Of a stretch of DNA of 33,395 nt, positions 9,002-24,546 are shown in pieces; the first letter of the stretch is position 1, and each line of letters opens with the position of its first letter. The notes below the pieces were generated by a model. That model ran no database searches and was not told the origin of the DNA. It worked only from the letters and a program-made list of their open reading frames with translations. The translations under genes were made by a program, and so were the position numbers. The stretch is from Hyphomicrobiales bacterium (GTDB lineage Bacteria; Pseudomonadota; Alphaproteobacteria; Rhizobiales; Hyphomicrobiaceae), in the NCBI GenBank assembly GCA_003963125.1, contig RXJK01000028.1, positions 1-33,395 on the forward strand, in the 5' to 3' direction.

Positions 9002-10027
9002 ATGAAGCTGTTCCCATTCGGCTGGGGCGCCAAACCGGCAAAGCCGCGCGGCGGCAGCGCCCGCAATCCGCGCACGCAGCCGCCCGCGCTCGGCAAGGCT
9101 CCGCCGTCCCTGTCCCAGCAACTGCAGCACGCGCAGGACGACTGGTCGCCCGGTCCGCCGCCGGGACGCTTCGGCGAGCCGATCCAGCCCGCGAGCTACG
9201 GCCAGTACGATCAATACGACCCGCCGGCGTTCGACGATTACAACCGCAACGGACACGCCCCGAGCGTGCAGGGCCACTATCAGCACCACGAGGAGCCGCA
9301 CGCCGGGCAGAACTGGCTGACGGCGGAGAACATCAAGAAAAGCTACGGCACGCGCCAGGTCGTGAAGGGCGTGAGCCTCGCCACCGGCCGCGGCGAAGCC
9401 GTGGGCCTGCTCGGCCCCAACGGCGCGGGCAAGACCACGACCTTCTACATGATCACCGGTCTCGTCGCCGCGGACTCCGGCAAGATCACGCTCGACGGCC
9501 GTGACGTCACCCGCCTCCCGATGTACCGCCGCGCCCGGCTCGGCATCGGTTACCTGCCGCAGGAAGCCTCGATCTTCCGCGGCCTCACGGTCGAGCAGAA
9601 CATCATGGCCGTGCTGGAACTGGTCGAGCCGAAAAAGAAGAAGCGGCGCGAGCAACTCGACAACCTGCTCGAGGAATTCAGCATCACCCGCCTTCGGAAG
9701 TCGCCGTCGCTGGCCCTGTCGGGCGGCGAGCGCCGCCGCTGCGAGATCGCCCGGGCGCTTGCCTCGCGTCCCTCGTTCATGCTGCTCGACGAGCCCTTCG
9801 CCGGTATCGACCCGCTCGCCGTGGGCGATATCCAGCAACTCGTCCGCCAGTTGACCGCCCGTGGCATCGGCGTCCTAATCACGGACCATAATGTCCGCGA
9901 GACCCTGAGCCTCGTCGATCGTGCCTACATTATTTACGACGGGCAGGTTTTGACACACGGTAACCCTCAGGAAATCATCAACAACGAGGATGTCCGGCGG
10001 GTCTACCTGGGGGACATGTTCGGTTAA
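9002..10027 (+). CDS. lptB: LPS export ABC transporter ATPase LptB
   Basis: 341 residues, about 100 longer than typical LptB. The ATPase part starts near residue 103 ([23 protein letters not shown]). It has Walker [18 protein letters not shown], a Q-loop in [19 protein letters not shown] (an LptB hallmark), signature [15 protein letters not shown], Walker [13 protein letters not shown] and switch His in [10 protein letters not shown]. The N-terminal extension is rich in Pro, Gln, Tyr and His ([18 protein letters not shown]) and probably disordered. LptB powers LPS extraction from the inner membrane with LptFG. It lies between the LptC-LptA fusion and rpoN, the classical alphaproteobacterial order. 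A downstream start near residue 100 is possible, but the extension has the same coding character as its surroundings. Confidence 0.94.
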
Positions 10028-10079
10028 TGCGGCGACCTTATACCTTGACCGTTGGACCAGTCCTGGTGACGATCTAGGC

Positions 10080-11642
10080 ATGGCGCTCATACCGAAACTT
10101 GAACTACGGCAAGGCCAGCAGCTGGTGATGACACCCCAGCTGCAGCAGGCCATCCGTTTGCTTCAGCTTTCGAACGTCGAACTGTGCTCCTTCGTCGAGG
10201 CCGAGCTCGAGCGTAACCCCTTGCTGGAGCGGGACGAAGCGTCTCCCGAACCGGCCGAGAGCGTCGAGCGCCGCGAGCGCGGAGAGCGCGAGGGCGACGA
10301 CGCCGACGGCGTCGACTGGGCGCTCGACCAGAAGCCGATCATGCTCAACGGCGAGGCCAAGGCCGACCGCATGGCCGCCGACAGGCCCGCGCAATCCGCC
10401 AATTCCGACACCGGCGCCCCGAGCAGCGCCGGCCCCGACCAGCCCGGCATCGACCTTGGCAACTGGAACTCGGTCCGCTCCGGCGGCGGCAGCTTCGACG
10501 CCGACGACAGCAGCATCGAGGACTATGTGGCCGCGGGCCTGTCGCTCGCCGACCACCTCACCGCGCAGCTCAACCTCGTCATCACCGATCCCATCGAGCG
10601 CATCATCGGCGCGCATCTGATCCACATGGTGGACGAGGCGGGCTACCTGCAGGGCGACCTCGGCGATCTCGCCCTGAAGCTCGGCGCACCCCTGTCGCGT
10701 ATCGAAGCCGTTCTCGGCGTGATGCAGACCTTCGATCCGCCCGGCGTCATGGCCCGCAATCTGGCCGAATGCCTGGCCCTGCAGCTCAAGGAGCAGAACC
10801 GCTACGATCCGCAGATCGCGCTCCTGCTCGAGAATCTCGAACTGCTCGGCAGCCACAACCTTGCGGCCCTGAAGCGCGCCGTCGGCGTCGATGGCCAGGA
10901 ACTCGCCGAGATGATCGCCGAGATCCGCACGCTCACCCCCAAGCCCGGCCTCAAGTTCGGCTCGGTGCAGATCCAGCCCGTGCTGCCCGACGTCATGGTC
11001 AAGCCCATGCGTGACGGCAGCTGGATGGTCGAGCTCAACAACGAGACGCTGCCGCGCGTCCTCGTCAGCCGCAGCTACTACGCCAACGTCTCGAAGACGG
11101 CCCGCTCCGAAAAGGATCGCGGCTACCTGCTCGAATGCCTGCAGAGTGCCAACTGGCTGGTGAAGAGCCTCGACCAGCGCGCCCGCACGATCCTCCGTGT
11201 CGCGGAAGAAATCGTCCGGCAGCAGGACGGCTTCCTGACCCACGGCATCGAGCACCTGAAGCCGCTCAACCTCAAGACGGTGGCCGACGCCATCTCGATG
11301 CATGAGTCGACCGTCAGCCGTGTCACCTCGAACAAGTACATGGCCACGCCGCGCGGCGTGTTCGAGCTCAAGTACTTCTTTACCTCCGCCATCGCTTCCG
11401 CTGACGGCTCCAGCGATGCGCATTCCTCTGAGGCTGTCCGCCATCGTATCAAGCAGCTGATCGACGCTGAGACGGCCGACACGGTTCTCTCCGACGACAA
11501 GATCGTGGAACTCCTCAAGCGCGACGGCATCGACATCGCCCGGCGTACGGTAGCGAAATACCGGGAGGCGTTGCGCATCCCCTCTTCTGTGCAGAGGCGG
11601 CGCGAAAAGCAGATGGCCGCACGCCTCGACTCAGTTGTCTAA
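10080..11642 (+). CDS. rpoN: RNA polymerase sigma-54 factor
   Basis: The start is the ATG at 10080 (MALIPKLELRQGQQLVMTPQLQQAIRLLQLSNVEL), giving 520 residues. Region I is the Gln/Leu-rich activator-responsive segment (residues 1-50). An acidic region II follows, then the core-binding domain and a C-terminal DNA-binding domain with the RpoN box ARRTVAKYREALRIPSS, which recognises the -24 element. Sigma-54 directs transcription from -24/-12 promoters and needs an AAA+ enhancer-binding protein. This matters here because two good -24/-12 elements are present at about 20.06 and 20.29 kb. It is 52 bp downstream of lptB. The usual next gene, hpf, is missing. Confidence 0.97.
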   Translation: MALIPKLELRQGQQLVMTPQLQQAIRLLQLSNVELCSFVEAELERNPLLERDEASPEPAESVERRERGEREGDDADGVDWALDQKPIMLNGEAKADRMAADRPAQSANSDTGAPSSAGPDQPGIDLGNWNSVRSGGGSFDADDSSIEDYVAAGLSLADHLTAQLNLVITDPIERIIGAHLIHMVDEAGYLQGDLGDLALKLGAPLSRIEAVLGVMQTFDPPGVMARNLAECLALQLKEQNRYDPQIALLLENLELLGSHNLAALKRAVGVDGQELAEMIAEIRTLTPKPGLKFGSVQIQPVLPDVMVKPMRDGSWMVELNNETLPRVLVSRSYYANVSKTARSEKDRGYLLECLQSANWLVKSLDQRARTILRVAEEIVRQQDGFLTHGIEHLKPLNLKTVADAISMHESTVSRVTSNKYMATPRGVFELKYFFTSAIASADGSSDAHSSEAVRHRIKQLIDAETADTVLSDDKIVELLKRDGIDIARRTVAKYREALRIPSSVQRRREKQMAARLDSVV

Positions 11643-11733: not shown

Positions 11734-12006
11734 CCGCCGCACTTGAAGCCCCTTGCGGGTGGGCCTCAGTCCTCTGTTCCGTCAACACGTTGCGTGCCGA
11801 GCGGCCGGGTTGCGAAAGCAACATCTGGCGGCGCGCAGGTATTGTGGCGCGGTTGGGCTCGGGCGGCACACTCGTTGCATCCTCTCCCGAGGGCCCTCTG
11901 GGGGACACGGGGGGAAACGGACAGCGCGGCCTGTGGATGGGCGTGGCGGTCCGTTAGGAATGGGATGGTATCCTGCGGGGGATCGACTGAGATTGGATAG
12001 GTGCGG

Positions 12007-12038
12007 TGGGTCATCGGCGGCATCTGCGCGTTGACCCA
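12007..12038 (+). repeat. 7-bp inverted repeat in the ptsN leader
   Basis: TGGGTCA at 12007-12013 and TGACCCA at 12032-12038 are exact reverse complements separated by 18 nt. It could be an RNA hairpin in a long ptsN leader or a protein-binding site about 110 bp upstream of the ptsN start. It is not followed by a T-run, so it is not an intrinsic terminator. Confidence 0.4.
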
Positions 12039-12148
12039 TGGAACAGCGACTGTCGCAAAGTGGTGCTAGGACGGCGCCGAAGCTGGCCCGGAATTTCGCG
12101 GGCGAAGGATTGGCGAGGCCCGTCTGGTTTGAGAGTGAAGAGAGCTCG

Positions 12149-12613
12149 ATGGATCTTGGTGACCTGATAACTCCTGAGGCGGTCTTTGCTTCACTGCGCG
12201 CGCAGAGCAAGAAGCAGGCGCTGCAGGATCTTGCGGAGAAAGCCGCCAAGATCACCGGGATCAGCGCCCGGGAGATCCTGGAAACGCTGATGCAACGCGA
12301 GCGGCTGGGTTCGACGGGCGTCGGCCGCGGCATCGCCATCCCGCACGGCCGCGTACCCCAGTTGAACCGGATCGTGAGCGTGTTCGCCCGCCTCGCTGAA
12401 CCCATCGAGTTCGATGCGTTGGACGGCGAGCCTGTCGATCTCATCTTTCTTCTGCTGGCGCCCGAGCATGCCGGGGCCGATCACCTGAAGGCGCTGGCGC
12501 GCATTTCGCGTCTGCTGCGCAACCCCTCTTCCGCCGAGAAGCTGCGCGGCGCCCACGACCGCGCGGCCCTTTACGCCGTGCTGACGGAACCGGCCGCCTC
12601 GCACGCCGCCTGA
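12149..12613 (+). CDS. ptsN: PTS IIA-like nitrogen-regulatory protein PtsN (EIIA-Ntr)
   Basis: PtsN proteins begin MDLGDLI, so I use the ATG at 12149 rather than the ORF start at 12038; this gives 154 residues. The phosphorylation site is His66 in GIAIPHGRVP, and the ERLGSTGVGRGIAIPHG block is diagnostic. The C-terminal region (DLIFLLLAPEHAGADHLKALARISRLLR) is typical. EIIA-Ntr is the terminal phospho-acceptor of PTS-Ntr and adjusts nitrogen, carbon and potassium-related functions by protein contacts. Its linkage to rpoN is conserved across proteobacteria. It is separated from rpoN by an unusual non-coding gap. Confidence 0.94.
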   Translation: MDLGDLITPEAVFASLRAQSKKQALQDLAEKAAKITGISAREILETLMQRERLGSTGVGRGIAIPHGRVPQLNRIVSVFARLAEPIEFDALDGEPVDLIFLLLAPEHAGADHLKALARISRLLRNPSSAEKLRGAHDRAALYAVLTEPAASHAA

Positions 12614-18981: not shown

Positions 18982-20013
18982 CTAGCTCACGCGGCGCAAC
19001 CCCGGCGCGGCCGCCGGCGGTTGGGGCGTGTAGGTGCGCGTCGGCGCCGCGAACCCGCACGACGTTCCATCCACGACCTTGATCTCCTTCTCCCACGGCA
19101 GCACGTACTGGCCCTTCGCGAGATCGGTCATGTAGGTATAGGGGCAGTCTTGCGCGCCGCCCTTGACGGCGACGTAGCCGCGATGGCCGAACTGGTAGAT
19201 GTTGTTCTCGACGCCCCAGTGGATGCGGGCCTCGTCGCACAGCTTTGGGCGCACCTCCGCCGTGATGATCTCGTCGGGAATGCCGTTCCCCGTCACGATG
19301 GGCGTGCCGTCGTAGTTGACGATCATGCCCTCGCCCATGGAGTTGAACGAGCCGTCGGAACCCGCGAGGCACACGCTTGCCGTATACATGAGATTGCAGA
19401 AGGCGTTCGACTGGTTGGTGAAGTGCCAGGCCTGCCGGATCGGCGCCGTGTAGCCGGCCGTACGCAGCATGATGTTGGCGCCCTTGTAGGCGCACTCGCG
19501 CGCCATCTCCGGGAACATGCCGTCGTGGCAGATGATCAGCGCGATCTTGCTGCCGTTCGGGCCGTCGCAGACGGGAATGCCGATATCGCCCGGCTCCCAC
19601 GGCTCGACAGGCACCCAGGGATGCATCTTGCGGTAATAGAGCTTCAACTCGCCCTTGTTGTCGATGATGAGGCCGCTGTTGAAAGGATTGCCGTGCGGGT
19701 TGAACTCCATGATGGAGAAGCAGCCCCAGATGTTGTTGCGCACGCACGCCGCCTTGAACTTGGCGACCTCCGGCCCGTCGAGCGAGCACATGATCTCCGG
19801 GTTGATGTCCATTGACAGCCCGTGCAGGGCGTACTCGGGGAACACGACCAGATCCATGGTCGCGAGGTTGCGCCGGGCCTTGTCGACGAGCCCGCAAATG
19901 CGGTCGGTTTGCGCGGCGAGATCCGCTTTCGTCACCACCGACGGGTTCTGGATCTGCACGAGGCCGATGACGACGCCATCGGGCGATTTGTTCAAGCCGC
20001 CAAGTCCGCTCAT
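18982..20013 (-). CDS. amiF: Formamidase (AmiF-type nitrilase-superfamily amidase)
   Basis: The start is the ATG at 20013 (MSGLGGLNKSPDGVVIGLVQ) with GGGAG upstream; the longer ORF to 20100 lies over the promoter. 343 residues, close to the 334 of Helicobacter AmiF. The catalytic Glu-Lys-Cys triad is E60 (VVFPEY), K129 (YYRKMHPW) and C162 (IICHDGM). AmiF-type signatures include HPWVPVEPWEPGDIGIPVCDGPNGSK, NAFCNLMYTASVCLAG and WGVENNIYQFGHRGYVAVKGG. Formamidase hydrolyses formamide to formate and ammonia in the cytoplasm. It faces an operon for a nitrile hydratase/thiocyanate hydrolase-like enzyme and has its own sigma-54-type promoter. A related short-chain amidase is the alternative, but similarity to AmiF is strong. 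Confidence 0.9.
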   Translation of the reverse strand: MSGLGGLNKSPDGVVIGLVQIQNPSVVTKADLAAQTDRICGLVDKARRNLATMDLVVFPEYALHGLSMDINPEIMCSLDGPEVAKFKAACVRNNIWGCFSIMEFNPHGNPFNSGLIIDNKGELKLYYRKMHPWVPVEPWEPGDIGIPVCDGPNGSKIALIICHDGMFPEMARECAYKGANIMLRTAGYTAPIRQAWHFTNQSNAFCNLMYTASVCLAGSDGSFNSMGEGMIVNYDGTPIVTGNGIPDEIITAEVRPKLCDEARIHWGVENNIYQFGHRGYVAVKGGAQDCPYTYMTDLAKGQYVLPWEKEIKVVDGTSCGFAAPTRTYTPQPPAAAPGLRRVS

Positions 20014-20060
20014 GTCGACGCTCCCGGTGCAAAGGATGTGGCAATCACGCGAGATGTGTC

Positions 20061-20076
20061 TGCAAGAGGCGTACCG
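20061..20076 (-). promoter_or_regulatory. Sigma-54 -24/-12 promoter for formamidase
   Basis: On the minus strand CGGTACGCCTCTTGCA has GG (20075-20074) and GC (20063-20062) separated by exactly 10 bp, with TTGCA at -12. Against TGGCACG-N4-TTGCA it differs only at the first T and the C of GGC. A start near 20050 leaves a leader of about 37 nt with GGGAG before the ATG at 20013. Confidence 0.6.
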
Positions 20077-20204
20077 GATCGCGAAGTTGAGCCCGGGCAT
20101 GGACTTGATGAAAGGCGCGCCGTATCCCGCCCAATCTGTGGGCGCATAGCGGCCAATCCGATTGTCATCGCAGCATTTCTCAACGGCAGTCAGGCGCTAT
20201 GGCG

Positions 20205-20223
20205 TGATCAGTTCCGCTGATCA
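20205..20223. promoter_or_regulatory. 7-5-7 inverted repeat, likely enhancer-binding-protein site
   Basis: TGATCAG (20205-20211), TTCCG, CTGATCA (20217-20223): perfect arms in a 19-bp dyad. It lies about 95 bp upstream of the predicted sigma-54 start for the substrate-binding-protein operon and about 165 bp upstream of that for formamidase. This is a normal distance for an activator site serving both. It does not match the NtrC consensus (TGCACCA type) or NifA (TGT-N10-ACA). The activator gene is not in the window. Confidence 0.5.
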
Positions 20224-20281
20224 GAGTGAGAAGCGCTCGTGAAAACCGGCAGTTCAGCAGCTTTCGCTATTGCCCACCCAC

Positions 20282-20297
20282 TGGCATCGGCATTGCA
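20282..20297 (+). promoter_or_regulatory. Sigma-54 -24/-12 promoter for the nitrile-hydratase-like operon
   Basis: TGGCATCGGCATTGCA: GG at 20283-20284 and GC at 20295-20296, separated by 10 bp, with TGGCA and TTGCA intact. The predicted start near 20308 is followed by a GGGGAG ribosome-binding site at 20315-20320 and the ATG at 20328, so the geometry fits well. Confidence 0.7.
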
Positions 20298-20327
20298 ACT
20301 CTCCTGCAAACCCTGGGGAGAACGGCA

Positions 20328-21692
20328 ATGGCTTTGGACGAGGAAGCGCCTGAGACCGTCTGCGGCTGCGGGTGTGGCGGCGACATGGCCCGGCACAAGG
20401 CGGAGATGTCCGAAGCCGGCGCCACGCCGGACTCCGAGGGCACCGAGGCCTACGTCGATCGCGCGGTCGACCACGCCATCCTGCAGGCCCTGTTCCCGCG
20501 CCCGCTGGCGCGCCGGGCACTGCTCAAAGCCGTCGGCGCATCGACTTTGCTCGCGGCGCTTGCCGACGCCTTCCCGCTAGCCGGCAGCCGCGCGCTGGCG
20601 CAGCAGGCGGGCGCGTTGGAAAAGACCAAGCTCAACGTCGGCTTCGTCCCCATCACCTGCACCGTGCCGATCCTCCTCGCGCAAGCCATGGGCGAGTACC
20701 AGAAGGAGGGGCTCGAGGTGAACCTCGCGCGCACGCCCGGCTGGGCCATCGTGCGCGACAAGCTCAACAGCGCCGAGTTCGACGCCTCGCACCTCGTGCT
20801 CGGCATGCCGCTCACCATGACGCTCGGCATCGGCTCGCAGCCCATCAGGACCATGGTCTCCACCGTCCAGAACGTGAACGGCAACGCCATCGTCCTGCAC
20901 GTGAAGCACAAGGACAAGCGCGACCCCAAGCAATGGAAAGGCTTCAAGCTCGGCATCCCGCATGAGCATTCCATGCACGCGATGCTGCTGCGCTACTACC
21001 TCGCCGAAGCGGGCCTCGATCCCGACAAGGACGTCGAGCTGCGCGTGTTCCCGCCGCCGGACTCGGTCGCCAACATGGCCGCGGGCAACCTCGACGGCAT
21101 GCTGTTCGCCGAACCCTGGGGCCAGCGCGCGGTGTTCGAGGGCATCGGCTTCATGCACATGCTCACCAAGGACATCTTCCCGAACCATCCCTGCTGCACG
21201 CTGTCTGTGACCGAGAAGTTCGTGAAGGAGAACCCGAACGCCTACGGCGCCATGTTCCGTGCCGTGGTGCGGGCGACGGAGTTCGCTGACAAGCAGGCGA
21301 ACCGCGCGCAGGTCGCCGATCTCCTCGCGCCCGCCAACTACCTGAACCAGCCCAAGACCGTGCTCGAGCAGGTTCTCCTCGGCCGCTTCGCAGATGGCCT
21401 CGGCGGCATCGTCACGGTCGAGGACCGCATCGGTTTCAAGGCGCTGCCTTACCAATCGACGGCGATCTGGCTGCTCACCCAGTTGCGCCGCTGGAACTTC
21501 ATCCCGACCGACCTCAACTATGCCGAGGTCGCCAAAACCGTGTTCCTGTCGTCGGAAGCCGAGAAGCGGATGAAGGACATGGGGCTCTCCCCGCCGGAGA
21601 CGACCATGCTGAAGCACGTGATCCTGGGCAAGGAGTTCGATCCGGCCCAGGCCGACACTTACCTCAAGAGCTTCGCGATCAAGCGGGCCTAG
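20328..21692 (+). CDS. NrtA/CmpA-type ABC transporter substrate-binding protein
   Basis: The start is the ATG at 20328 after GGGGAG; the ORF extension from 20226 covers the promoter. 454 residues. Residues about 100-420 match the NMT1-like/NrtA family that binds small anions such as nitrate, bicarbonate or cyanate (KLNVGFVPITCTVPILLAQAMGEYQKEGLEVNLARTPGWAIVRDKL; HPCCTLSVTEKFVKENP). Before this lies a twin-arginine-like signal (ARRALLKAVGASTLLAALADAFPL, RR at 62-63) and, before that, an odd 60-residue extension with CGCGCGGD (Cys12, 14, 16). No permease or ATPase gene is in the operon. It probably delivers the substrate of the enzyme encoded downstream; the ligand is unknown. Confidence 0.87.
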   Translation: MALDEEAPETVCGCGCGGDMARHKAEMSEAGATPDSEGTEAYVDRAVDHAILQALFPRPLARRALLKAVGASTLLAALADAFPLAGSRALAQQAGALEKTKLNVGFVPITCTVPILLAQAMGEYQKEGLEVNLARTPGWAIVRDKLNSAEFDASHLVLGMPLTMTLGIGSQPIRTMVSTVQNVNGNAIVLHVKHKDKRDPKQWKGFKLGIPHEHSMHAMLLRYYLAEAGLDPDKDVELRVFPPPDSVANMAAGNLDGMLFAEPWGQRAVFEGIGFMHMLTKDIFPNHPCCTLSVTEKFVKENPNAYGAMFRAVVRATEFADKQANRAQVADLLAPANYLNQPKTVLEQVLLGRFADGLGGIVTVEDRIGFKALPYQSTAIWLLTQLRRWNFIPTDLNYAEVAKTVFLSSEAEKRMKDMGLSPPETTMLKHVILGKEFDPAQADTYLKSFAIKRA

Positions 21693-21707: not shown

Positions 21708-22022
21708 GTGACGCGCGGATACCACGACATCGGCGGCGAGGACTACGGCCCCATCCCCCAGGTCGAACTGCCCTGGCTGCATTGGGAGAAGCAAGTCGAA
21801 GCGGTGCGTAACCTGCTCGGCGACGGCACACGCCGCATCATCTCCCTCGACGAGATGCGCCGCGGCTTCGAGTCTTTCGGTGCGGACAAGTACAAGATGT
21901 ACTCGTTCTATCGGCGCCGCCTCGAATCCATGATCGACGTGCTGATCGAGAAGGGCGTCATCACCCGCGAGGAACTCGACGCCGAGATCGCCGAAGTCCG
22001 TTCGCGCTGGTGCCCTCCCTGA
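21708..22022 (+). CDS. Nitrile hydratase beta N-domain / thiocyanate hydrolase ScnB-like subunit
   Basis: The start is the GTG at 21708 with GGAG eight bases upstream; 104 residues. YHDIGGEDYGPIP matches the beta-subunit N-terminus of nitrile hydratase (xHDxGGxxxxGP), and SLDEMRRGFESFGADKYKMYSFYRRRLESMIDVLIEKGVITREEL matches its helical domain up to the conserved end. The C-terminal SH3-like half of beta is missing and is encoded by the next gene. This is the split known from thiocyanate hydrolase, where ScnB is the N-terminal half. It is shorter than Thiobacillus ScnB (about 157 residues). Because nitrile hydratase activator proteins share this domain, an accessory role in metal insertion is an alternative. 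It lies 15 bp after the substrate-binding protein. Confidence 0.8.
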   Translation: MTRGYHDIGGEDYGPIPQVELPWLHWEKQVEAVRNLLGDGTRRIISLDEMRRGFESFGADKYKMYSFYRRRLESMIDVLIEKGVITREELDAEIAEVRSRWCPP

Positions 22023-22036
22023 TCGCGGAGCGTCCC

Positions 22037-22411
22037 ATGCGTGGCAGGTTCAAGGTCGGCGATCGCGTGACCGTGCTCGAGCTGAACAAAGCCGGCCACA
22101 TCCGTACGCCGTTCTACGTGCGCCACAAGACGGGCGTCGTGGTGCAGGATTGCGGCCTGTTCCTCAACCCCGAGGATCTCGCTGTCGGCATCACGAGCGG
22201 GCCGGTGGTTAAGCTCTACCGCGTGCAGTTCCAGCAACGCGATCTCTGGCCCGACTACAAGGGCGCCCCGCAGGACACGCTCTGCATCGAGATCTACGAC
22301 CATTGGCTCGAAGCCGCCCGCACCACCGCTCGAAAGTCCGCGCCCAAACCTGCTTCCAAGAAGAAGCCCGCCACGAGGAAGAAGAATGAGCCACGAAGCG
22401 CACGAGCATGA
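22037..22411 (+). CDS. Nitrile hydratase beta C-domain / thiocyanate hydrolase ScnA-like subunit
   Basis: The start is the ATG at 22037 with GGAG upstream; the GTG at 22010 would overlap the previous stop. 124 residues, close to Thiobacillus ScnA (about 126). RFKVGDRVTVLELNKAGHIRTPFYVRHKTGVVVQDCGLFLNPED followed by LYRVQFQQRDLWPD and LCIEIYDHWLE is the SH3-like beta C-domain of nitrile hydratases. The Arg in TPFYVRHKTG corresponds to a residue that contacts the oxidised cysteines of the metal site. The last 25 residues are a Lys/Ala/Pro-rich tail that the alpha-type gene overlaps by 26 bp. Confidence 0.85.
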   Translation: MRGRFKVGDRVTVLELNKAGHIRTPFYVRHKTGVVVQDCGLFLNPEDLAVGITSGPVVKLYRVQFQQRDLWPDYKGAPQDTLCIEIYDHWLEAARTTARKSAPKPASKKKPATRKKNEPRSARA

Positions 22412-23078
22412 CGACCATGATCACGGCGACCACGACCACGACCACGCTCATGATCACGGCGGCAAGCATTCGCACCCGAGCTTGGTGATCGAGGACGAGG
22501 CCGGCAACATCGAGGGCCAGATCATGATCGATGCCCTGCAGAACCTGCTCGTTGCCCGCAACCTGCTCGCGCATCAGGAGGTGACGCAGGAAATCGAGAA
22601 ACTGGAATCACCGGGCGTGCATCAGGGCGCCAAGATCGTCGCGCGCGCCTGGACCGACCCGGCCTTCAAACAGCGGCTGCTGGCGAACGGCAAGTCCGCT
22701 GCCGCCGAACTCGACATCAAGGTCGGCGAGGCGCAGCTCGTCGTGGTCGAGAACACGCCCGACACCCACAACCTCATCACCTGCACGCTGTGTTCGTGCT
22801 ACCCGCGCTCGATCCTCGGCCAGCCGCCGTCCTGGTACATCTCCAAGGCCTACCGCGCTCGCGCCGTCCGCGAGCCGCGCGCCGTGCTGGCGGAATTCGG
22901 CATGTCGCTGCCCGACGATGTCGAACTCGTCGTCCACGACAGCAACGCGGACATGCGCTACCTCGTCCTGCCGGAGCGCCCCGAGGGTGCCGAAACCTGG
23001 AGCGAGGACAAGCTTGCCGAACTCGTCACGCGCGATTGCATGATCGGCGTGTCGAAAGCACTTCCCGCGCAGTCATAG
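22386..23078 (+). CDS. Nitrile hydratase alpha / thiocyanate hydrolase ScnC-like catalytic subunit
   Basis: 230 residues from the ATG at 22386, preceded by GAGGAAG. The metal claw is CTLCSC (Cys133, 136, 138). The Thr is typical of cobalt-type enzymes, in which the second and third cysteines are oxidised post-translationally. The flanking VVVENTPDTHNLI and SWYISKAYRARAVREPRAVLAEFG are alpha-subunit hallmarks. After the claw, CYPRS replaces the CYPW common in nitrile hydratases, which may change specificity. The first 32 residues hold 12 His among Asp and Glu (HEHDDHDHGDHDHDHAHDH), probably a metal-storage or delivery tail. With the two split beta-type proteins it should form the cytoplasmic catalytic core. 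It hydrates nitriles or hydrolyses thiocyanate; which one cannot be decided. Confidence 0.88.
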   Translation: MSHEAHEHDDHDHGDHDHDHAHDHGGKHSHPSLVIEDEAGNIEGQIMIDALQNLLVARNLLAHQEVTQEIEKLESPGVHQGAKIVARAWTDPAFKQRLLANGKSAAAELDIKVGEAQLVVVENTPDTHNLITCTLCSCYPRSILGQPPSWYISKAYRARAVREPRAVLAEFGMSLPDDVELVVHDSNADMRYLVLPERPEGAETWSEDKLAELVTRDCMIGVSKALPAQS

Positions 23079-23541: not shown

Positions 23542-24459
23542 CTACGGCACGTACTTCTTCAGCTCGCCCGCGATATCGACGGCCTGCACGACCTCGGTCA
23601 GCGCGCCGACGAGCGGCGGCAGCGGATGCCGCTCGGCAATCAGAAGCCCCATCGTGTTGCTCGCGAGCGGCTCCACGAGCGGGATGGCCTTCGTGCCCTG
23701 CCAGCCGCTGATCAGGAAGAAGAACGAGTGCGGCACGATCGTGAACCACGCGCCCGAGCGCACGTGCGAGCACAACACGACGGCGCAATCGGTATCGATC
23801 ACCGTCTTCGGTGACACGCCCGCGCTCTGGAAGATGCTGTCCAGCAGCAGCCGGTTCAGCATTTCCGGCGAGAGCAGGCACAGCGGCAGATCGGCGGCCT
23901 CGCGCCAGCTCACCTGCGCCTGCGTGGCGATGGCATGCCCCTCGGGCGCCAGCAGGTAATAGCTCTCCTCGTAGAGATCGTAGGGCCGCAGCCCCGCGTG
24001 CGTTGCGTGGTCGAGGTAGGTGATGCCGACCTCGAGATCGAAGCGTTCGAGCCCGCGCACGATTTGCGCGCTCGTCTGCGACTGGAGCGACACCGTCACG
24101 CCCGGAAACTGCTTCTGGAACGGCGTGGTGATCAGCGACACCATGGGCGTCGCCATCGGGATCACCCCGATCCGAAGATGGCCCGACAACTTTTCCGGGT
24201 CGGAGCCTGCGATCTGCTGCAGCAGGGTCTTGCGGTCCGCCAGCAGCCCCCGCGCCCACTCCAGGATGCGCGTGCCCTCGGGCGTGAAGCCGCGAAAACC
24301 CTGGTTGCGGCGGTCCACGATCGGGACGCCAAACTCCTGCTCGATGTTGCGGAGCGCCTGGGACAGGGCCGACTGGCTGATCTCGCACGCCTGCGCAGCA
24401 CGCCCGAAATGCCGTTCGCGGGCCAGGATGACGAGATACTCCAGTTGTCGCAGCTGCAT
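23542..24459 (-). CDS. LysR-family transcriptional regulator
   Basis: The start is the ATG at 24459 (MQLRQLEYLVILARERHFGRAAQACEISQSALSQALRNIEQEFG), giving 305 residues. The N-terminal winged helix-turn-helix is typical, followed by a periplasmic-binding-protein-like effector domain (LRIGVIPMATPMVSLITTPFQKQFPGVTVSL to the C-terminus). LysR regulators usually sit beside a divergently transcribed target and bind between them. Here a perfect palindrome lies 60 bp upstream, but the next plus-strand gene is rplS, an unlikely target. The sequence style (FTPEGTRILEWARGLLADR) recalls LysR proteins found beside formate dehydrogenase operons; that is memory-based and weak. The effector is unknown. Confidence 0.92.
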   Translation of the reverse strand: MQLRQLEYLVILARERHFGRAAQACEISQSALSQALRNIEQEFGVPIVDRRNQGFRGFTPEGTRILEWARGLLADRKTLLQQIAGSDPEKLSGHLRIGVIPMATPMVSLITTPFQKQFPGVTVSLQSQTSAQIVRGLERFDLEVGITYLDHATHAGLRPYDLYEESYYLLAPEGHAIATQAQVSWREAADLPLCLLSPEMLNRLLLDSIFQSAGVSPKTVIDTDCAVVLCSHVRSGAWFTIVPHSFFFLISGWQGTKAIPLVEPLASNTMGLLIAERHPLPPLVGALTEVVQAVDIAGELKKYVP

Positions 24460-24518: not shown

Positions 24519-24546
24519 CATGTTTGCCTATTTATAGGCAAACATG
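24519..24546. promoter_or_regulatory. 28-bp perfect palindrome upstream of the LysR gene
   Basis: CATGTTTGCCTAT (24519-24531), TT, ATAGGCAAACATG (24534-24546): 13-bp exact arms. The core CTATTTATAG with outer TTTGC/GCAAA is of the LysR dyad type. Its position 60-87 bp upstream of the LysR start supports autoregulation and control of a divergent promoter. Confidence 0.75.

What the first reader, a model, noticed from the sequence alone, without database searches (positions are those of the whole stretch)
20050..20308. Two divergent sigma-54 promoters sharing one enhancer-type inverted repeat
CGGTACGCCTCTTGCA (minus, formamidase) and TGGCATCGGCATTGCA (plus, binding-protein operon) both have GG-N10-GC spacing, and each is followed by a sensible leader and ribosome-binding site. 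Between them TGATCAG-N5-CTGATCA is a perfect dyad at an activator-like distance. This places the whole locus under RpoN, itself encoded 9 kb away with ptsN, and predicts an unknown AAA+ activator, since the dyad is not an NtrC or NifA consensus.
Basis: partly seen in the sequence, partly recalled or inferred. Interest (0 to 1): 0.74.

Follow-up and report, generated by a model that had tools for sequence, protein, structure and literature searches.

The report
Sigma-54 nitrile-hydratase promoter beside LysR operator
The control region between a formamidase gene and a nitrile-hydratase-type operon carries one evolutionarily conserved sigma-54 promoter plus a conserved palindrome that is most likely the landing site of the LysR-type regulator encoded at the end of the same gene cluster, so no unknown sigma-54 activator needs to be invoked for the palindrome.

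Summary
All three sequences exist where stated. The GG-N10-GC spacing alone means nothing here (747 occurrences in the window, 740 expected), so I tested conservation in orthologous loci.

(1) The plus-strand promoter is real: a TGGCA(C/T)-type sigma-54 site precedes the binding-protein gene in all eight relative copies sharing this gene order, with 0-1 mismatch to consensus.

(2) The dyad is real but misread. It is conserved as ATnAG-N5-CTnAT, the middle base changing on both arms together. It accompanies the cluster's LysR gene (7/9 LysR loci, 1/71 homologous loci without it). In Beijerinckia it persists without any sigma-54 site; in betaproteobacterial relatives the sigma-54 site persists without it. 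In relatives it lies a fixed 58-59 bp from a conserved element at the formamidase sigma-70-type -10, placing it near -65, the textbook LysR position. Its distance to the sigma-54 site varies (50-101 bp).

(3) The minus-strand sigma-54 site is found in no relative, so it is unproven.

Closest known design: atzR/atzDEF (sigma-54 promoter plus LysR-controlled divergent promoter). New in detail, known in kind; binding and transcript starts are inferred, not measured.

The parts
20205..20223 (.). dyad TGATCAGttccgCTGATCA; core ATCAG-N5-CTGAT (20207-20221), predicted LysR-type operator (T-N11-A)
   Evidence: covarying orthologous dyads; association with LysR gene
20282..20297 (+). sigma-54 promoter of SBP-nitrile-hydratase operon (TGGCATCGGCATTGCA); inferred start about 20308
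   Evidence: conserved in L036, L037, L038, L039, L045, L047, L178, L179
20061..20076 (-). sigma-54-like site upstream of formamidase (CGGTACGCCTCTTGCA); inferred start about 20050; not conserved in relatives
18982..20013 (-). formamidase (NF009803, 571 bits, cutoff 406)
20328..21692 (+). NMT1-like ABC substrate-binding protein
21708..22022 (+). nitrile hydratase beta N-terminal half as separate subunit
22010..22411 (+). nitrile hydratase beta C-terminal half as separate subunit
22386..23078 (+). nitrile hydratase alpha / thiocyanate hydrolase gamma-type subunit (CTLCSC metal site)
23542..24459 (-). LysR-type regulator (CynR-like), syntenic in the orthologous clusters; candidate owner of the dyad
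9990..11642 (+). rpoN (sigma-54)
12038..12613 (+). ptsN

Best explanation
The intergenic region is a composite control region. The binding-protein/nitrile-hydratase operon (plus strand) is transcribed by sigma-54 RNA polymerase from 20282-20297, most likely under nitrogen limitation through a general activator already in the genome (NtrC is the favourite; inferred). The dyad at 20205-20223 is the recognition site of the CynR-like LysR regulator encoded at 23542-24459. In relatives that site lies at about -65 of a sigma-70-type formamidase promoter, which LysR presumably activates with a pathway inducer while possibly modulating the sigma-54 side. In this organism the formamidase -10 is degenerate, and the sigma-54-like site at 20061-20076 may or may not have replaced it. 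Shown by comparison: conservation of the sigma-54 site and the dyad, linkage of dyad to LysR, fixed geometry. Inferred: binding, activator identity, inducer, direction of regulation.
For: Same gene order FMD(-)/SBP-bN-bC-a(+)/LysR(-) in Hansschlegelia, Xanthobacter, Methylopila and a Xanthobacteraceae MAG, and the same order with degraded FMD and NHase genes in Methylorubrum. Sigma-54 site 0-1 mismatch in 8/8 copies, 53-63 nt before the SBP start in the seven measured from that start. Dyad AT(C/T/A)AG-N5-CT(G/A/T)AT with symmetric centre base; only 8 perfect dyads in 978 kb of held loci, 7 of them in LysR-bearing clusters; 7/9 vs 1/71, P = 9e-8. CAGTCYAWAT element 58-59 bp from the dyad in six copies and 59 bp also at both Chelatococcus sites (sequence); -10-like hexamers TATAAT/TATATT/TAGAAT at offset 53. 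Decoupling: Beijerinckia has LysR and two dyads but no sigma-54 site; beta-proteobacterial L040/L063 have a sigma-54 site before the operon but neither LysR nor dyad. LysR recognition helix is conserved. T-N11-A near -65 is the LysR norm (PMC8407307).
Against: Window lysR is the most diverged of the close set (about 53% identity) and lies convergently at the far end instead of beside its operator. The conserved -10/CAGTC element is not recognisable in the window (best hexamer GACAAT, 4/6). L047 has a second dyad beside a 1-mismatch sigma-54 site before an MFS gene, so some dyad/sigma-54 co-occurrence exists. The closest further LysR relative (G762, 45-47%) has no dyad nearby. No binding or transcript data.
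Confidence: 0.74

Rival explanations
1. One reading: two divergent sigma-54 promoters share the dyad as upstream activating sequence of an unknown AAA+ enhancer-binding protein.
For: Both sites have 2 mismatches to consensus; the dyad centre is at about -94 (plus) and -164 (minus, from coordinates), workable enhancer distances; a second dyad + sigma-54 pair occurs in L047.
Against: Minus site absent in all relatives. Dyad and sigma-54 sites separate in both directions. The five clear enhancer-binding proteins of the genome lie on other contigs and read as NifA-like, NtrC, NtrX and two response regulators. Fixed spacing is to the other promoter.
Confidence: 0.1
2. Sub-variant of the best explanation: the dyad is a LysR operator, and in this organism the formamidase promoter really switched to sigma-54 (20061-20076), so both divergent promoters are RpoN-dependent with LysR modulating them.
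For: Minus site has 2 mismatches, its inferred start is 36 nt from an ATG preceded by a GGAG ribosome site, chance about 0.016; the conserved sigma-70 element is missing here; the dyad-to-ATG distance is 201 bp against 140-154 in relatives.
Against: No relative shows it; the formamidase gene is found in 1 of 103 family genomes at E<=1e-130, so conservation within the family cannot be tested.
Confidence: 0.3
3. The dyad is a stem-loop or chance palindrome without regulatory role.
For: Matches of this pattern at up to 3 mismatches occur about once per window by chance.
Against: Covarying conservation at the same place in orthologous loci and near-absence elsewhere.
Confidence: 0.03

Closest known systems
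atzR-atzDEF divergent region of Pseudomonas sp. ADP (cyanuric acid, nitrogen-scavenging)
   Same: One LysR recognition site between a sigma-54 promoter and a LysR-activated divergent promoter; nitrogen-source catabolism (summary in PMC5263251).
   Different: There the sigma-54 promoter drives the LysR gene itself, and LysR represses it from the shared site; here it drives the binding-protein/nitrile-hydratase operon. LysR is at the far end of the cluster, although relatives show a sigma-54-like site before lysR.
CynR/cyn operon (LysR control of cyanate use)
   Same: Regulator is CynR-like by HMM (127.7 bits, below the 277 cutoff).
   Different: Different enzymes (no cyanase seen among the genes examined); sigma-54 promoter present.
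Classical NtrC/NifA sigma-54 enhancer promoters
   Same: -24/-12 promoter on the plus strand.
   Different: No recognisable NtrC site conserved; the dyad is better assigned to LysR.

Membership tests
sigma-54 promoter (plus strand, 20282) | GG-N10-GC core within TGGCACGN4TTGCW | tested here: met
   core exact, 2 mismatches; 0-1 in relatives
sigma-54 promoter (plus strand, 20282) | conserved at orthologous position | tested here: met
   8/8 relative copies
sigma-54 promoter (plus strand, 20282) | RpoN-dependent transcript start | not testable with these tools
   rpoN gene present; no transcript data
sigma-54 promoter (minus strand, 20076) | conserved at orthologous position | tested here: not met
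   best 4-7 mismatches in seven relative copies
LysR-type operator | T-N11-A box with dyad symmetry | tested here: met
   ATCAG-N5-CTGAT contains T-N11-A (PMC8407307)
LysR-type operator | centred near -65 of a regulated promoter | tested here: inconclusive
   met in relatives by sequence; promoter not recognisable in the window
LysR-type operator | linked LysR gene co-occurring with the site | tested here: met
   7/9 vs 1/71, P=9e-8
LysR-type operator | binding by the cognate protein | not testable with these tools
   needs EMSA/footprint
enhancer (UAS) of a sigma-54 activator | site co-occurs with sigma-54 promoters | tested here: not met
   separable in L180 and in L040/L063
enhancer (UAS) of a sigma-54 activator | linked or dedicated AAA+ activator gene | tested here: not met
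   no PF00158 hit on the window's contig C131; 5 clear ones elsewhere
nitrile hydratase / thiocyanate hydrolase | passes curated subunit cut-off | tested here: not met
   alpha 237.5 (cutoff 249.85) and 197.2 (cutoff 291.45) bits

The most novel reading that the evidence does not exclude
A LysR-type regulator directly modulates sigma-54 promoters from a shared operator: here both divergent promoters are sigma-54 dependent, and in Hansschlegelia beijingensis (L047) the same dyad sits about -63 from a sigma-54 site before an MFS gene, so a non-AAA+ regulator would superimpose an inducer signal on nitrogen control.
Probability: 0.25. Interest if true: 0.6.

Novelty: new variant of a known kind. 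Interest (0 to 1): 0.42.

Why it matters
It gives a testable wiring diagram for a formamidase/three-subunit nitrile-hydratase cluster: nitrogen status through sigma-54 and a pathway signal through LysR. I found no paper on it in the searches made. It also corrects the prediction of an unknown AAA+ activator and names the LysR gene to test.

Tried and rejected
GG-N10-GC as evidence by itself: rejected (747 vs 740 expected). Exact dyad genome-wide: single copy; the two AGATCAG-N5-CTGATCT copies on the same contig lie inside one ORF and were not taken as regulon members. NtrC-type sites: none conserved. Sigma-54 + dyad pattern in 398 genomes of the order: 7 hits, 4 in the known clusters; for the other 3 I saw no link to this cluster, and only one of them (L183) was looked at. 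Formamidase promoter within the family: no other genome has the gene at the threshold. LysR orthologues in 385 class genomes: one further, without dyad. Literature: only one incidental paper holds both 'thiocyanate hydrolase' and 'LysR'; no paper found on sigma-54 control of a formamidase/nitrile hydratase locus (judged from titles, abstract starts and one paper).

Full report
Observation. The two promoter-like sites and the dyad are present at 20061-20076 (-), 20282-20297 (+) and 20205-20223. The formamidase starts at 20013 (-) and the binding protein at 20328 (+); identities were confirmed with NCBIfam and Pfam. GG-N10-GC is as frequent as chance in this 66% GC window (747 vs 740), so spacing carries no weight. 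With GG/GC kept and up to 2 mismatches to TGGCACGN4TTGCW the rate is 0.053 per kb per strand in held DNA. The exact dyad is unique in the 6.2 Mb assembly.

Relatives. A scan with the alpha subunit found orthologous clusters. Six loci carry SBP, both beta halves, alpha and the convergent LysR in the window's order: L036, L037, L038, L039, L045, L047. Five of these also have the divergent formamidase; L039 lacks it. Methylorubrum L178/L179 keep the order with degraded formamidase and nitrile hydratase genes. Beijerinckia (L058/L180) has LysR, ABC genes, SBP and nitrile hydratase in one direction. Within the window's own family of 103 genomes the formamidase is found only here at E<=1e-130 and SBP relatives are about 50% identical paralogues, which suggests, without proving, that the cluster was acquired.

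Plus promoter. Sites at the orthologous place: TGGCACGATGGTTGCT, TGGCACGGCGGTTGCA, TGGCACGACCGTTGCT and TGGCACGCGGGTTGCT (twice) with 0 mismatches; TGGCACAGGTATTGCT, TGGCACGGTGATTGCC and TGGCATGGAGGTTGCT with 1. Surrounding DNA is poorly alignable, so this is selective conservation. Two beta-proteobacterial relatives, L040 and L063, have a 1-mismatch site directly before the first gene (an ABC ATPase) of the homologous transporter/nitrile-hydratase operon, without LysR or dyad. Sigma-54 control of this operon therefore does not depend on the dyad.

Minus promoter. In the relatives the best GG/GC-containing sites upstream of formamidase have 4-7 mismatches. Instead there is an element CAGTCYAWAT on the plus strand, 58-59 bp from the dyad in six copies and, from the sequence, 59 bp also at both Chelatococcus dyads, one of which lies before an unrelated divergent ABC operon. 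Read on the minus strand this is a -10-like hexamer (TATAAT, TATATT, TAGAAT in the best cases) followed by TTRGACTG. If transcription starts at the GACTG, the dyad centre lies near -65. In the window this element is not recognisable and the dyad-to-ATG distance is 201 bp, compared with 140-154 in relatives (from coordinates). So the window's formamidase promoter is undecided: a sigma-54 switch is possible (chance of such a site about 0.016) but unsupported by conservation.

Dyad. It reads ATCAG-N5-CTGAT here, ATTAG-N5-CTAAT in L036/L047 and ATAAG-N5-CTTAT in L037/L038/L045, with imperfect versions in L039, L178 and L179. The middle base changes on both arms together, as for a symmetric protein site. 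In 978 kb of held loci only 8 perfect dyads of this form occur, 7 in LysR-bearing clusters. Perfect dyads occur in 7 of 9 LysR loci against 1 of 71 nitrile hydratase loci without that LysR, Fisher P = 9e-8. The loci are related, and the LysR loci are partly those in which the motif was first seen, so this P value overstates the case. Beijerinckia, examined afterwards, has the LysR, two perfect dyads and no sigma-54 site. The dyad contains the LysR box T-N11-A, usually found near -65 (PMC8407307). LysR recognition-helix residues are conserved. Distances to the sigma-54 site vary from 50 to 101 bp.

Activator. PF00158 finds five clear enhancer-binding proteins in the assembly, none on the window's contig. 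From sequence and neighbours I read them as NifA-like, NtrC (after NtrB), NtrX (after NtrY) and two response-regulator types (naming from my own knowledge of these families, not an HMM test). NtrC is my favourite by physiology; no NtrC site is conserved, but NtrC activation without such a site is documented for atzR (PMC5263251).

Comparison. The nearest known arrangement is atzR-atzDEF: a single LysR site activates one promoter and represses a divergent sigma-54 promoter. Here the sigma-54 promoter drives the catabolic operon instead; relatives also show a sigma-54-like site 60-70 nt before lysR (2-3 mismatches in L036, L037, L038, L047, L178, L179), absent in the window. This is a new variant of a known kind.

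Limits. No transcript, binding or mutant data were available; the assembly is 93.6% complete in 410 contigs, so an activator gene could be missing. The substrate of the operon is unresolved: the alpha subunit falls below both the nitrile hydratase and thiocyanate hydrolase cut-offs.

Noticed in passing
window 24520-24545: Perfect inverted repeat ATGTTTGCCTAT-TT-ATAGGCAAACAT (12-bp arms) about 60 bp upstream of the LysR start; no sigma-54-like site there, unlike in relatives.
   Followed up: partly
window 11864-11879: Sigma-54-like site CGGCACACTCGTTGCA (2 mismatches) between rpoN and ptsN.
   Followed up: no
L005 6105-6123 and 6326-6344 (contig C131 39404 and 39625): Two TTTGAGATCAG-N5-CTGATCTC palindromes 221 bp apart inside one 307-aa ORF.
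   Followed up: partly
L047 9366-9425: Second ATTAG-N5-CTAAT dyad next to a 1-mismatch sigma-54 site before an oxalate/formate-antiporter-like MFS gene; Beijerinckia L180 has a dyad about 490 bp upstream of a similar MFS gene.
   Followed up: partly
window 21708-23078: Nitrile hydratase beta encoded as two overlapping half-genes plus alpha with CTLCSC motif, a three-subunit layout as in thiocyanate hydrolase, below both curated cut-offs.
   Followed up: partly
L178 and L179 (Methylorubrum rhodesianum): Two copies of the cluster with intact LysR and SBP and perfect sigma-54 sites but truncated formamidase and gapped nitrile hydratase genes; L179 shows the sigma-54 site twice.
   Followed up: no
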